Source: an uncultured Lachnospiraceae bacterium (GTDB lineage Bacteria > Bacillota > Clostridia > Lachnospirales > Lachnospiraceae). Taken from it: a DNA stretch of 43,481 bases. A program made the translations under genes and the position numbers. Of this stretch, positions 3,458 through 24,419 are shown one piece after another. Position 1 is the first letter of the stretch, and each line of letters opens with the position of its first letter. A model generated the notes under the pieces. It saw nothing but the letters and a program-made list of their open reading frames with translations. It did not search any database and was not told the DNA's origin. The stretch lies in the NCBI GenBank assembly GCA_900316395.1, contig ONCT01000011.1, positions 1-43,481 of the forward strand. The letters are read 5' to 3'.

Positions 3458-3773
3458 GTTTTAATTAATGATTATGGTAAGTTAGGTTGTATTTAGTGAT
3501 TAGGGTGGTGGATAGGTTATAAGCTTATGCTAATTCTTCGCTAAATATATGTAAGTGATTGATATTAAAACAATGTAATAGTTGGACAGAAACCAGCGGC
3601 TGATTCACCATCCAGGTGACAGCCGCTTTTTCTCGTCATCCATGACGAGAAATTTCTTCATTTAATCAATCACTAACATATCTTAAGCTCGAATTAATGC
3701 ATCGCTTATAACCTATCCACCACCCTAATCACCTAATATAAGTATTTACTTAACCATAATCATTAATTAAAAC
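3458..3773 (+). repeat. Large branched palindromic element, copy A
   Basis: A 316-bp imperfect palindrome with no plausible gene. The outermost arms (3458-3478 and 3753-3773) match perfectly over 21 bp, and inner arms (3496-3524 and 3704-3732) over 29 bp. The core starts at CTTCGCTAA (3536-3544) and its end includes CTTAAGCTCG (3682-3691). Inside lie hairpin 1 at 3595-3627 (lower stem AGCGGCTG/CAGCCGCT, AT bulge, upper stem TCACC/GGTGA, loop ATCCA) and hairpin 2 at 3631-3650 (stem TCTCGTCA/TGACGAGA, loop TCCA). The same fold with different stem sequences occurs four more times in the window. The element begins 15 bp after the jag stop and may end that transcript; there is no long T run. Confidence 0.85.
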
Positions 3774-3829
3774 TGTCGCATTTACACTTATAATATTAAT
3801 TATTCTTAGGTTACAGTTATAGATGGTAG

Positions 3830-4075
3830 TGAGGGGGTGGAGGGGAGATTAGGTATTCTCATACATATAGATGCGAGCGTTATTATATGTTAGTAATTGG
3901 TTAAGTAAGGATAATTCGTGACAGGGATGTCACGAATAGGTACTCGCTGCCTGGATGGCAGCTCGAGTACCGGTATCCGTCCTGATTTCTATTAGTTCTT
4001 ATACCAATTACTTACATATAATTAGTGAAGTATCGTCGTATGAGAATACCTAATCTCTCCCCGCCCCCCCTCTCA
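3830..4075 (-). repeat. Large branched palindromic element, copy B (inverted relative to A)
   Basis: A 246-bp imperfect palindrome. Perfect arms of 19 bp lie at 3846-3864 and 4038-4056 and extend outward as a G-rich left arm and a C-rich right arm. Read on the minus strand it has the common order: hairpin 1 (3939-3971; lower stem GGTACTCG, AG bulge, upper stem CTGCC/GGCAG, loop ATCCA) then hairpin 2 (3914-3937; 10-bp stem, loop TCCC). It is the most diverged copy: the usual CTTCGCTAAG entry is only recognisable as ACTTCACTAA. It points toward copy A, and a promoter-like AT-rich stretch for mnmE starts immediately after it. Confidence 0.8.
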
Positions 4076-4150
4076 CACCAAATAATAATTGTAAAATAAG
4101 TAATAATCTAATATTATATATAATGGTGTTAACAGTTTGAGGTAATGATT

Positions 4151-5521
4151 ATGGCAAGTAATGATACGATTGCTGCTATTTCTACTGCTCTGAGTAATTC
4201 GGGAATTAGTATTATTAGAGTTAGTGGTGATAATGCAATTAGTTTGATTGACAAGATATATAAAGGTAAGCAGAAATTGGCTGATGTTGATAGCCATACT
4301 ATCAATTATGGGCATATTATTTATAATCAAGAAATCATTGATGAGGTGTTTGTATCAGTTTTTAAGGCTCCATCCACATTTACCAGAGAGGATGTAGTAG
4401 AGATTAATTGTCATGGCGGCATTCTTATTACCAAAAAGATTCTTGAAATTGTATTAGAACTTGGTATCAGATTAGCCGAGCCAGGAGAATTTACAAAGAG
4501 AGCTTTTCTTAACGGAAGGATTGATTTAAGCCAGGCAGAATCAGTGATGGACATAATACAATCCAATAGTGAGTATGCTTTGAAGGCATCTGTTAATCAG
4601 CTTAATGGAAGTGTTTCTAAAGAGATAGTGTTAATGCGTGAGAAGATTATCTACGAGATTGCCTATATTGAATCAGCACTTGATGATCCAGAGCATATTT
4701 CTCTTGATGGTTATACCGATAGATTAAGTGAAGTTGTAAGTGAAGTTAAGAATAAAGTTGATGAACTTATTGCGAGTAGTAATAATGGAATTCTTCTTAA
4801 GGAAGGAATAAATACTGTTATTGTAGGCAAGCCTAATGCTGGCAAATCATCACTTCTTAATATTCTTGCTAATAAAGAAAAAGCAATTGTTACTGATATT
4901 CCTGGCACAACAAGAGATATAATAGAAGAAAGAATTGTAATTAATGATATAATTCTTAACATTATTGATACGGCAGGAATTCGCGACACCGATAATGTTG
5001 TTGAGAGAATTGGTGTTGATAAGACATTTCAGGAAATTGACAACGCTGATTTTATAATTTATGTGGTTGATAGTTCAATTCCACTTGATGATAATGATAG
5101 TAGAATAATTGATAAGATTCAGGATAAGAAATGTGTATGCCTATTTAACAAGTCTGATTTAGAGACTGTAGTTAATGAAGAAGATATTAGTAATAAAATT
5201 GATGGTAGGATAATTTCATTTTCTGCTAAGGATTCAATTGGATTAGATGAGCTTGAAGAAGAGATTAAGAATCTTTTCTTCGATGGTAAGATTAGCAACA
5301 ATGATGAAACTATTATTACTAATGTAAGGCATAAGGATTTACTTTGTAAATGTAGAGAGTCACTCTCTTTAGTTGAACAAAGTATCAACAACGACATGCC
5401 TGAAGATTTCTACTCTATTGATTTGATGGATGCCTACAAATCTCTAGGAACCATCATTGGTGAATCAGTGGAAGACGACCTGGTGGAAGAAATCTTCTCT
5501 AAATTCTGTATGGGAAAATAA
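4151..5521 (+). CDS. mnmE: tRNA modification GTPase MnmE
   Basis: A 456-residue GTPase that, with MnmG, installs the (carboxymethyl)aminomethyl group on U34 of tRNAs reading purine-ending codons. Visible parts: N-terminal folate-binding domain (residues 1-118), helical domain, G domain with the P-loop GKPNAGKS (about 226-233), G2/G3 motifs GTTRD and DTAG, NKSD (G4), and the C-terminal FCMGK whose Cys is conserved in the family. I chose ATG 4151 over ATG 4145 because the GAGGT site at 4139-4143 is 7 bp away from it. mnmG follows, but with a 135-bp gap that holds a conserved hairpin. Confidence 0.96.
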   Translation: MASNDTIAAISTALSNSGISIIRVSGDNAISLIDKIYKGKQKLADVDSHTINYGHIIYNQEIIDEVFVSVFKAPSTFTREDVVEINCHGGILITKKILEIVLELGIRLAEPGEFTKRAFLNGRIDLSQAESVMDIIQSNSEYALKASVNQLNGSVSKEIVLMREKIIYEIAYIESALDDPEHISLDGYTDRLSEVVSEVKNKVDELIASSNNGILLKEGINTVIVGKPNAGKSSLLNILANKEKAIVTDIPGTTRDIIEERIVINDIILNIIDTAGIRDTDNVVERIGVDKTFQEIDNADFIIYVVDSSIPLDDNDSRIIDKIQDKKCVCLFNKSDLETVVNEEDISNKIDGRIISFSAKDSIGLDELEEEIKNLFFDGKISNNDETIITNVRHKDLLCKCRESLSLVEQSINNDMPEDFYSIDLMDAYKSLGTIIGESVEDDLVEEIFSKFCMGK

Positions 5522-5563
5522 TTTCTTATACATAATTTCTTAAGATGCAAATAAGTTGTGTAG

Positions 5564-23044: not shown

Positions 23045-23095
23045 TTTGCCATCTGGCACATCAAGAGTGCAGCCTGTCTAAAGTAAAGGGAAGAA

Positions 23096-23677
23096 ATGTT
23101 ATATTGTATTATTGGAAAAAGTTCTACAGGAAAAGATACGATATTCAAGTGTTTACTAGAGAACAAGTCTCTTAATCTTGAAAATGTAGTAAGCTACACC
23201 ACCAGGCCTATTCGAGAGCACGAGGTTGATGGGGTAGAATACCATTTTGTAGACGAAAAGAAGAGGGACGAATTAGATAAAGCCGGCAAAATCATTGAGC
23301 TTAGGCGTTATAACACCTGCTACGGACCTTGGGATTATTTTACTGTAGATGATAAGAGCCTTGATATTGAAAATAAGGATTACTTAATCATTGGAACCTT
23401 AGAATCTTACGAAAAAATACGCGACTACTATGGAAAAGGCCTTGTTCGACCGATATATATAGAAGTAGAGGATGGTCTTCGTCTGCAACGCGCCCTCAAC
23501 AGGGAGAAGAAGCAAAAGCATCCGAAATACAACGAGATGTGCAGGCGATTCTTAACGGATGACGAGGATTTCTCTAAGGAGAAGCTAAAAAAAGCCAATG
23601 TAGACAGGACATTTGTCAATAACGATATTGATAGTACTGTAAATGAGATAATAGAGTATATACGTTCTTGTGGGTAG
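23096..23677 (+). CDS. Guanylate kinase-like P-loop kinase
   Basis: A 193-residue protein with the guanylate kinase layout: P-loop GKSSTGKDT (residues 7-15) in place of the usual GPSGSGKGT, the GMP-binding signature SYTTRPIREHEVDGVEYHFV (about 38-57) and a C-terminal helical lid. Guanylate kinase converts GMP to GDP with ATP. It occupies the place of thymidylate kinase (tmk) in the B. subtilis order. Whether it is the main cellular Gmk or a paralogue cannot be told from this window. It follows the decarboxylase after 51 bp. Confidence 0.8.
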   Translation: MLYCIIGKSSTGKDTIFKCLLENKSLNLENVVSYTTRPIREHEVDGVEYHFVDEKKRDELDKAGKIIELRRYNTCYGPWDYFTVDDKSLDIENKDYLIIGTLESYEKIRDYYGKGLVRPIYIEVEDGLRLQRALNREKKQKHPKYNEMCRRFLTDDEDFSKEKLKKANVDRTFVNNDIDSTVNEIIEYIRSCG

Positions 23678-23686
23678 GAGAGAAAT

Positions 23687-24127
23687 ATGGATATTAAGGT
23701 TAGTAATGTAACACCTGTTAATCAGGTAAAAGAGACAGAACAGGTTCAAAAGGGTGACGATTCCTTTAAGTTCACGCTGGTGTCGAAGATAGATGATGCC
23801 AACCTGAAGCAGAAGTTGTCTTCCCTTATGGAAAATATTAATCAACAGGGTGATAAGATAGCTAAGCATATGGATATTAACGACCTGCAGAAGTATCGTG
23901 AGCTTGTAAAAGAGTTCATGAATGAGGTGGTTAACAGGTCACATGAGTTTACGAGAGAGAATTTCCTTGATAGAAAAGGTCGTCATAGAGTGTATGGCAT
24001 GATTCGTCAGGTGGACGATAATCTTGATGGGCTTGCTAAGGAGCTTGTTAAGGAAGAGAAGGACCACATTGCAATCTTAGGTCACATCGACGAAATCCGC
24101 GGATTGCTACTTGATATTTCGACCTAG
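23687..24127 (+). CDS. YaaR family protein (DUF327)
   Basis: A 146-residue acidic helical protein with the YaaR/DUF327 pattern LMENINQQGDKIAKHMDINDLQKYRELVKEFMNEVV. Its function is unknown; B. subtilis yaaR lies just before holB. A GGAG site is near the ATG, 9 bp after the kinase gene. In this window holB is displaced by 5.3 kb, and directly after the yaaR stop come GC-rich tandem repeats and palindromic element E. Confidence 0.87.
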   Translation: MDIKVSNVTPVNQVKETEQVQKGDDSFKFTLVSKIDDANLKQKLSSLMENINQQGDKIAKHMDINDLQKYRELVKEFMNEVVNRSHEFTRENFLDRKGRHRVYGMIRQVDDNLDGLAKELVKEEKDHIAILGHIDEIRGLLLDIST

Positions 24128-24200
24128 GCGGCGCCCCAGGCCCCGTAATCTAAGCGGCGCCCCAAGCTCCGCAATTATGCGGCTCCCCAGGCCCCGCCGC
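24128..24200 (+). repeat. GC-rich tandem repeats after yaaR
   Basis: Three tandem units of about 22-26 bp (24128-24153, 24154-24178, 24179-24200) share a GCGGCGCCCCAGGCCCCG-like block followed by a short AT segment. They are far more GC-rich than their surroundings, begin at the yaaR stop codon, and the last unit runs into the outer arm of element E. Confidence 0.8.
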
Positions 24201-24419
24201 TGTGTTGGAAGTATATTGCCAAAGGTAATGCTTCGCTAAGAATATATAAGTGATTATATAAGATATAATTGATATGACACAACCGTTGCTCGATCTGCCA
24301 TCCAGGTAGCGAGCAACTAATCCCAGCATCCCTGCTGGGATTTTGTTGTATACAGAGATAATCACTAATATATTCTAAGCTTGCATTAATCCTTAGCAAT
24401 ATACTTCCAACACAGCGGC
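24196..24419 (+). repeat. Large branched palindromic element, copy E
   Basis: A 224-bp element with a perfect 24-bp outer inverted repeat (24196-24219 and 24396-24419). Core from CTTCGCTAAG (24231-24240) to CTAAGCTTG (24375-24383). Hairpin 1 at 24286-24316 (TTGCTCG/CGAGCAA, AT bulge, CTGCC/GGTAG, loop ATCCA), hairpin 2 at 24319-24342 (AATCCCAGCA/TGCTGGGATT, loop TCCC), preceded by GACACAACC. The core is nearly the same as copy C 13.7 kb away. Hairpin 2 is followed by TTTTGTTGT, so a truncated fold could also act as a terminator. Confidence 0.88.

What the first reader, a model, noticed from the sequence alone, without database searches (positions are those of the whole stretch)
3458..24419. 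Five-copy family of large branched palindromes with covarying stems and conserved loops
Seen directly: elements at 3458-3773, 3830-4075, 10517-10764, 10963-11236 and 24196-24419 share a fold. A long stem with entry motif CTTCGCTAAG and exit motif CTAAGCT(C/T)G leads to a GAC..ACC single-stranded stretch, hairpin 1 (7-8 bp lower stem, 2-nt 5' bulge AT or AG, 5-bp upper stem ending CC/GG, loop ATCCA or ATCCT) and hairpin 2 (8-10 bp stem, loop TCCN). Lower stems differ (AGCGGCTG, GGTACTCG, TTGCTCG, TTGCATA) but always pair, as do hairpin 2 stems. Between C and E, paired changes occur: GTGATT/AATCAC versus ATGATT/AATCAT, AATATAT/ATATATT versus AATTTAT/ATAAATT, and a C-G versus T-A pair in hairpin 1. 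This is strong evidence that the fold, as RNA or single-stranded DNA, is under selection. No reading frame or transposase is inside. I know no family with this layout.
Basis: partly seen in the sequence, partly recalled or inferred. Interest (0 to 1): 0.93.

Follow-up and report, generated by a model that had tools for sequence, protein, structure and literature searches.

The report
Predicted CsrA-decoy hairpin RNAs (TwoAYGGAY)
The five large hairpins belong to a known but unexplained RNA family called TwoAYGGAY, found in 5 to 39 copies in each of eight related gut-bacterium genomes, and they are predicted to bind and tie up the regulatory protein CsrA, which this work could not test.

Summary
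The five elements are real, but the family is known: all five pass Rfam's cut-off for TwoAYGGAY (RF01731), function unknown. Found here: (1) Most copies have long outer arms, copy-specific in sequence but self-complementary (score >=20 in 105 of 145 copies, 1 of 150 controls). (3) 82 different cores covary in 40 of 42 pairs. (4) Hairpin 1 has GGA in 82 of 82 and CANGGANG, the published high-affinity CsrA loop, in 76; hairpin 2 has GGA in 68. (5) Of 45 TwoAYGGAY-bearing genomes among 299 of the family, 44 have csrA and 45 flagellin, so csrA cannot be separated from motility. (6) Close pairs are head-to-head in 20 of 21 cases. (7) At some sites the core differs inside nearly unchanged arms; at two it is 99-100% identical beside 73-79% flanks. 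Best mechanism: dispersed CsrA decoys, an idea printed in 2014 from motif matches. Transcription and binding are untested; no promoter signal was found.

The parts
3458..3773 (-). Element A: TwoAYGGAY RNA with copy-specific outer arms; Rfam core 3530-3698
   Evidence: Rfam RF01731, 75.2 bits; arm fold
3530..3698 (-). Core of A (two GGA hairpins)
   Evidence: cmscan; a different core (68% identity) in G006 within 98% identical arms
3830..4075 (+). Element B: head-to-head partner of A; Rfam core 3872-4033
   Evidence: RF01731, 69.5 bits; pair orientation
3872..4033 (+). Core of B
   Evidence: cmscan
10517..10764 (-). Element C: Rfam core 10558-10719
   Evidence: RF01731, 99.6 bits; orthologous site occupied in G004 with mirrored arm changes, apparent deletions in G006 and G002 (by eye)
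10558..10719 (-). Core of C
   Evidence: cmscan
10963..11236 (+). Element D: head-to-head partner of C; Rfam core match 10995-11161
   Evidence: RF01731, 65.2 bits
10995..11161 (+). Core match of D; the true 3' end of the core lies further on because of the nested hairpin
   Evidence: cmscan
11113..11153 (+). Nested extra hairpin in D with further GGA motifs, a repeat of its own also seen in other TwoAYGGAY copies
24196..24419 (-). Element E: Rfam core 24225-24388
   Evidence: RF01731, 97.5 bits; apparent truncated remnant at the orthologous site of G006 (by eye)
24225..24388 (-). Core of E
   Evidence: cmscan

Best explanation
The five elements are copies of the Rfam RNA family TwoAYGGAY, and the RNA from the Rfam strand is predicted to bind dimers of CsrA through its two GGA hairpin loops and so likely acts as a dispersed decoy that would relieve CsrA repression, chiefly of flagellar genes. 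Shown here: family membership, which strand is constrained, the covarying fold, the CANGGANG loop, 5-39 copies per genome in the genus, copy-specific outer stems with RNA-level selection over about 40 nt, csrA next to fliW in the host genome, and, in the family sample, restriction almost wholly to genomes with csrA and flagellin. Inferred: that the RNA is made, that CsrA binds it, and that binding regulates flagellin. Also inferred: since I found no orientation bias relative to genes and no promoter signal, the RNAs probably come from read-through transcripts, and the long double-stranded outer stem would let RNase III cut them free. That would explain why the stem's sequence is free to differ as long as it pairs.
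For: Rfam: 5 of 5 elements over the cut-off; the window's only other matches are two tRNAs. Strand: in 85 non-redundant arm families, 15-40 nt from the core edge, G.U 99 versus A.C 17 (p 3e-15), but 27 versus 32 at 40-60 nt and 18 versus 15 beyond. Between orthologous arms single changes to or from G.U are 40 versus 11 for A.C, through both G-C (17) and A-U (23), so one-strand deamination alone does not explain it. Core stems: 44 G.U versus 13 A.C cells. Covariation: 40 of 42 pairs, 95.4% of cells paired versus 73.9% shuffled and 32-49% slid. Loops: GGA in hairpin 1 in 82 of 82; CANGGANG in 76 of 82, one base shorter (CAGGANG) in 5, CGCGGATG in 1; GGA in register in hairpin 2 in 68 of 82, 25-27 nt from the first in 66 of those 68. 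PMC4894983 (passages) names CANGGANG hexaloops as the high-affinity CsrA/RsmE target and 18 nt as the best spacing for a dimer. PMC7652899 (passages) gives the SELEX consensus RUACARGGAUGU. Hosts: 44 of 45 TwoAYGGAY-bearing genomes have CsrA versus 110 of 254 without it (Fisher 1.7e-13); 8 of 8 genomes of the genus have both. In G000, csrA follows fliW (Pfam), and its protein aligns with CsrA chains of solved structures.
Against: Flagellin is as good a partner as CsrA (45 of 45 versus 111 of 254, Fisher 9e-15), so the association could reflect motility or shared ancestry; no tree correction was made. One TwoAYGGAY genome (G175) has no CsrA match. 14 of 82 cores lack in-register GGA in hairpin 2, and its consensus loop lacks the A of CANGGANG. 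No promoter signal upstream: 57 of 127 score higher upstream, 67 downstream, p 0.15; in paired copies the scan favours the downstream side (14 versus 23, p 0.02). A decoy does not by itself explain head-to-head pairs, core replacement or near-identity between species. Gram-positive CsrA control is known to use the protein FliW, which is present here.
Confidence: 0.5

Rival explanations
1. A mobile hairpin element in the manner of REP/REPIN repeats or MITEs, moved or exchanged by an enzyme supplied elsewhere; the RNA fold matters for its spread rather than for regulation.
For: 5-39 dispersed copies per genome, no bias to gene orientation (single copies in tandem gene pairs: 31 same, 35 opposite; 18 convergent, 12 divergent), head-to-head pairs in 20 of 21 close pairs, core replacement inside fixed arms, a site occupied in G000 with neither core nor arms in G006.
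Against: The ends that an enzyme would have to recognise differ between copies, and none of 13 arms has a significant second copy elsewhere in the genome. Three of the four sites compared (A/B, C/D, E) show apparent deletions with remnants. No clean insertion with target duplication was recognised. Core stems change more slowly than unpaired bases between orthologues (2.0% versus 4.8%).
Confidence: 0.22
2. A cis-acting 3'-end or intercistronic element (transcription terminator or mRNA stabiliser), as Rfam's type 'Cis-reg' would suggest.
For: In the G000 and G001 rows printed many copies lie within 30-60 nt of an open frame's end; very stable hairpins.
Against: Near-equal numbers in both orientations relative to tandem genes and 12 single copies in divergent intervals (crude gene calls). 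The 2010 table lists the motif as a probable RNA but probably not cis-regulatory (PMC2864571, passage). Invariant loops are not needed for a terminator.
Confidence: 0.13
3. A DNA-level palindrome feature: arms are made and kept perfect by template switching or hairpin repair, and the covariation is a by-product of such mutation rather than of RNA selection.
For: Distal arms (40 nt and beyond) show no strand asymmetry (27 versus 32, 18 versus 15). Long-term core changes are mostly full double changes with few G.U states (761 cells against 44). Breakpoints of core replacement lie at matching depths of the stem (by eye).
Against: Strong G.U over A.C excess at 15-40 nt, and single-sided changes dominate between orthologues (63 single versus 8 double in core stems; arms). 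Invariant loops.
Confidence: 0.1
4. The copy-specific arms are guides or antisense sequences against other loci of the genome.
For: Arms are specific to each locus and at two sites 96% identical where flanks are 73-79%; at a third 95% over 42 nt and 87% over 38 nt.
Against: 13 arm pieces of 50 nt searched against the own genome gave, apart from themselves and partner arms, no match below E 0.0145 (40 of 49 first-look candidates scored).
Confidence: 0.03

Closest known systems
TwoAYGGAY RNA, Rfam RF01731 (described in 2010, PMC2864571)
   Same: All five elements match over the full model, 168 positions, above the gathering score.
   Different: Rfam's model stops where the copy-specific outer arms go on for tens of base pairs; copy number, head-to-head pairing and core replacement were not mentioned in the passages I saw. 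[quoted passage not shown]
CsrA/RsmA-sequestering sRNAs (CsrB, CsrC, RsmX/Y/Z)
   Same: More than one GGA hairpin loop per RNA, one of them of CANGGANG type; host has CsrA.
   Different: No match in the window to any Rfam family but RF01731 and tRNA. Two or three GGA hairpins per RNA, spread over many loci, in a Lachnospiraceae genome that also has FliW; binding untested.
REPIN / MITE-type dispersed hairpins (features recalled)
   Same: Dispersed, inverted pairs.
   Different: No shared terminal sequence: the conserved part is inside, the ends differ between copies.

Membership tests
TwoAYGGAY (RF01731) | Score above Rfam's gathering cut-off of 43 bits | tested here: met
   65.2-99.6 bits, 5 of 5 elements
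TwoAYGGAY (RF01731) | Two hairpins with GGA in the loop on a long closing stem | tested here: met
   GGA in both loops of all five elements; covarying stems
CsrA-sequestering sRNAs (CsrB/RsmZ kind) | Repeated GGA hairpin loops of CsrA type | tested here: met
   CANGGANG in hairpin 1 in 76 of 82; GGA in hairpin 2 in 68 of 82, without the preceding A in the consensus
CsrA-sequestering sRNAs (CsrB/RsmZ kind) | Host encodes CsrA | tested here: met
   Own genome and 8 of 8 of the genus; 44 of 45 in the family sample
CsrA-sequestering sRNAs (CsrB/RsmZ kind) | Match to an Rfam Csr/Rsm sRNA family | tested here: not met
   Only RF01731 and two tRNAs in the window
CsrA-sequestering sRNAs (CsrB/RsmZ kind) | Transcribed as an sRNA and bound by CsrA | not testable with these tools
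   No expression or binding data available; promoter scan gave no signal
REPIN/MITE | Shared terminal inverted repeats in all copies | tested here: not met
   Outer-arm similarity in 60 pairs of copies, 58 between genomes and 2 local; no second genomic copy of 13 arms tested
REPIN/MITE | Clean insertion sites with target duplication | tested here: inconclusive
   One site without core and arms in G006, no duplication recognised; other differences look like deletions
Cis-regulatory element / terminator | Fixed orientation relative to the controlled gene | tested here: not met
   31 same versus 35 opposite (single copies, tandem genes), 12 single copies in divergent intervals

The most novel reading that the evidence does not exclude
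Lachnospiraceae carry a dispersed CsrA sponge: dozens of small two-loop decoys scattered through intergenic DNA, cut out of whatever transcript crosses them by RNase III acting on copy-specific giant stems, often in head-to-head pairs so that either direction of transcription yields one decoy, and renewed by swapping the active tip inside old arms. It would be an RNA arm of CsrA control in Gram-positive bacteria beside FliW.
Probability: 0.25. Interest if true: 0.8.

Novelty: new member of a known kind. Interest (0 to 1): 0.5.

Why it matters
TwoAYGGAY was described in 2010 and was still called a family of unknown function in 2014, when a CsrA role was suggested from motif matches. The strand assignment, the CANGGANG loop, the host distribution and the copy-rich genomes found here turn that suggestion into a direct experiment: a gel shift and an RNA-seq library would go far to decide it. 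If right, gut Lachnospiraceae, whose flagellins are major host antigens (recalled), would control CsrA with RNA decoys as gamma-proteobacteria do. Independently of function, copy-specific near-perfect stems with swappable tips are an unexplained mode of evolution.

Tried and rejected
Novel family: rejected by the Rfam match. Promoter upstream of the RNA: no signal. Bistable pairs sharing the middle arm: left and right outer arms of a pair are direct repeats above the 95% control level in 2 of 20 pairs, both of them the A/B locus (G000 and G006); rejected as a general feature. Arms as guides: no significant second match. Arms of common origin among paralogues: not supported (58 of 60 similar-arm pairs are between genomes). 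Phage origin: 26 phage-collection records match window 1-8000 at 60-80% identity; I read these as chromosomal DNA in faecal records, not tested. Other palindromes at orthologous sites: no Rfam family in the loci scanned. I built no covariance model and ran no structure prediction, fold search or the search for homologous proteins.

The recount shows intermediate cores too and 76 of 82; both are mended.

Limits: one search's tallies add to 169 matches in eight genomes, but its list was cut; I transcribed 151 (own genome included, one row), held DNA for 147, had enough flank for 145, and used 129 with arm score >=14 for mismatch counts (85 after removing related arms). A1 used 82 of 96 non-redundant cores. 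In one search, 9 of 43 core comparisons were dropped for identity under 90%. One search scored at most 9 candidates per genome, so its copy numbers are lower bounds. Gene calls are crude open frames. One search's between-group list left out G006 by a sorting slip; one search replaces it.
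Full report
What is there. Five large hairpins lie at the stated coordinates. All five match Rfam RF01731, TwoAYGGAY, end to end: 75.2, 69.5, 99.6, 65.2 and 97.5 bits for A-E against a cut-off of 43; the only other Rfam matches in the window are two tRNAs. On the Rfam strand A, C and E are minus, B and D plus. 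The window is a contig of a 2.17-Mb assembly. The nearest named contig, CAJOGN010000052 from a sheep Lachnospiraceae metagenome assembly, encodes MnmE at 97% identity and has the same length, 21,412 bases, as contig C52 of G006. Flanking genes by Pfam: A/B between jag/khpB and mnmE; C/D between a Peptidase_C26/glutamine amidotransferase-like gene and a gene without Pfam match; E between a DUF327 gene and a large Flg_new-repeat protein.

Copy number and distribution. The own genome has 14 matches; the eight genomes of the genus have 5 to 39 each. In 299 genomes of the family (298 genera), 45 have a match at E <= 0.001, 43 of them over the cut-off; the 14 control genomes have none.

Outer arms. 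Outside the Rfam model most copies go on as a long inverted repeat. Extending outward from the core edges, 105 of 145 copies score at least 20 (median arm length over all 145: 51 nt) against 1 of 150 when arms of different copies are combined. D is among the copies that fail this scan, because its nested hairpin shifts the core edge. Outer-arm similarity by BLAST was found in 60 pairs of copies, 58 of them between genomes; the two within one genome are local. In the own genome none of 13 arm pieces has a significant second copy other than its partner arm (best other match E 0.0145).

Which molecule and strand. On the Rfam strand, arm positions 15-40 nt from the core edge have 99 G.U against 17 A.C mismatches over 85 non-redundant arm families (p 3e-15), while farther out the numbers are equal (27:32 and 18:15). 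Comparing orthologous arms, single changes between a Watson-Crick pair and G.U number 40 against 11 for A.C in the same zone and 17 against 17 farther out; G.U arises from both G-C and A-U pairs (17 and 23), so one-strand deamination alone does not explain it. In the cores 44 G.U and 13 A.C cells are seen. This points to selection on RNA of the Rfam strand, including about 40 nt of outer stem. The distal arms show no such sign.

Fold. In 82 cores RNAalifold predicts 42 pairs, 40 with compensatory change; counted against controls, 95.4% of cells pair, versus 73.9% after shuffling and 32-49% after sliding, and no shuffle of 500 reaches the observed value on any of the five measures. The structure was derived from this alignment, which favours it in the slid control. 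Between orthologues core stems change at 2.0% per site and unpaired bases at 4.8%; stem changes are 63 single and 8 double. The scarcity of G.U over long times despite many double changes (44 cells against 761) is notable, and replacement of whole tips (below) may contribute.

Loops and CsrA. Hairpin 1 has GGA in 82 of 82; CANGGANG in 76, CAGGANG (one base shorter) in 5 and CGCGGATG in 1. Hairpin 2 has GGA in register in 68 of 82, 25-27 nt from the first in 66 of those 68. CANGGANG hexaloops are the high-affinity CsrA/RsmE target and 18 nt the best spacing for a dimer according to PMC4894983 (passages); the SELEX consensus is RUACARGGAUGU in PMC7652899 (passages). PMC4333381 (passage) already proposed from motif matches that TwoAYGGAY is a CsrA-binding sRNA in Clostridia and called validation work in progress. 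For 'TwoAYGGAY' 7 papers are held and 5 listed; in the passages read from those 5 I saw no report of a test. Searches for CsrA with Firmicutes/FliW/sRNA, with sponge/Clostridi and with Lachnospiraceae (listings only) showed no title about it. Most subscription papers are not in this library.

Co-occurrence. Of the 45 TwoAYGGAY genomes 44 have a CsrA match, against 110 of 254 without TwoAYGGAY (Fisher 1.7e-13). Flagellin does as well: 45 of 45 against 111 of 254 (9e-15). csrA and flagellin coincide in 151 genomes, so the test cannot tell CsrA from motility, and it is not corrected for ancestry. All eight genomes of the genus have csrA; in G000 it follows fliW and its protein aligns with CsrA chains of solved structures.

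Arrangement. Of 21 neighbouring copies closer than 500 bp among the 151 transcribed matches, 20 are head-to-head (minus then plus on the Rfam strand), one is same-strand, none tail-to-tail. In the listed part five more close pairs from other genera are four head-to-head and one same-strand. Single copies show no preference relative to gene direction (31 same, 35 opposite, 18 convergent, 12 divergent). No promoter-like excess is seen upstream. Own promoters are therefore unsupported; read-through transcription and release by RNase III is my inference.

Evolution. Core replacement: at the A locus G000 and G006 share 98% of arms but 68% of core, while G000 and G002 share 96% of arms and 98.8% of core. 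In G002 versus G004 the inner tip differs with arms 98% alike over 55 nt, and breakpoints lie at matching depth on both sides of the stem (by eye). Over all 18 comparisons between the G000/G006 and G001/G002/G004 groups with at least 400 nt of flank aligned, the core is 98.8-100% in 3 (two loci, flanks 73-79%, arms 96%), 69-72% in 8 (flanks 74-83%), and 82-92% in 7 (flanks 79-98%). Within G001/G002/G004 the median identities are 90.7% flank, 93.8% arm, 96.5% core, and core exceeds flank in 25 of 32 comparisons. So cores tend to be kept well but are sometimes replaced. Near-identity may mean strong constraint or exchange between species; I cannot separate these. Losses by deletion inside the hairpins appear common (A/B in G001 and G004, C/D in G006 and G002, E in G006, by eye); one site (C33) has neither core nor arms in G006.

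Verdict. The elements are members of a known RNA family, with extras that I did not find in print within the passages and listings named above. The best mechanism is a dispersed CsrA decoy (confidence 0.5); the strongest rival is a mobile hairpin element (0.22).

Noticed in passing
window 11113-11153; L012, L069, L071, L074, L077, L166; L200 (leader of a G002 flagellin gene): A second small hairpin repeat, roughly TGTCRTAAGGRGGGACC-loop-GGNGGATTCCTTAYGA, nested in several TwoAYGGAY copies at the same place, with dozens of matches elsewhere in the genus, one similar copy in a flagellin leader. It also carries GGA motifs.
   Followed up: partly
L181, L182, L183 (site of the G000 copy on C33); L174 (G006 site of the C42 copy); L047 (jag-mnmE interval of G007): Unrelated large palindromes occupy intergenic sites that hold TwoAYGGAY in G000. 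No Rfam match in L174, L181, L182 and L047 (L183 not scanned).
   Followed up: partly
window 3530-3698 versus L042; L096/L114 versus L138: Different core or tip inside nearly unchanged arms, with breakpoints at matching stem depth. No close donor among the copies held.
   Followed up: partly
window 24120-24190 and 24450-24520: Short direct repeats on both sides of element E (GGCGGCGCCCCAGGCCCCG-like, and CGCCGCAAYATAGAGTGNCATGAG-like), seen by eye.
   Followed up: no
window 24691-29424: A 1577-aa protein with ten Flg_new (Listeria-Bacteroides) repeats and a DUF5648 domain, probably a surface protein; by eye the region downstream of this site looks different in G001, G002, G004 and G007 (not tested).
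   Followed up: no
G175:C18:235-401 (L187): The only TwoAYGGAY-bearing genome of 45 without a CsrA match; a single copy 234 bases from a contig end in a 93% complete genome.
   Followed up: no
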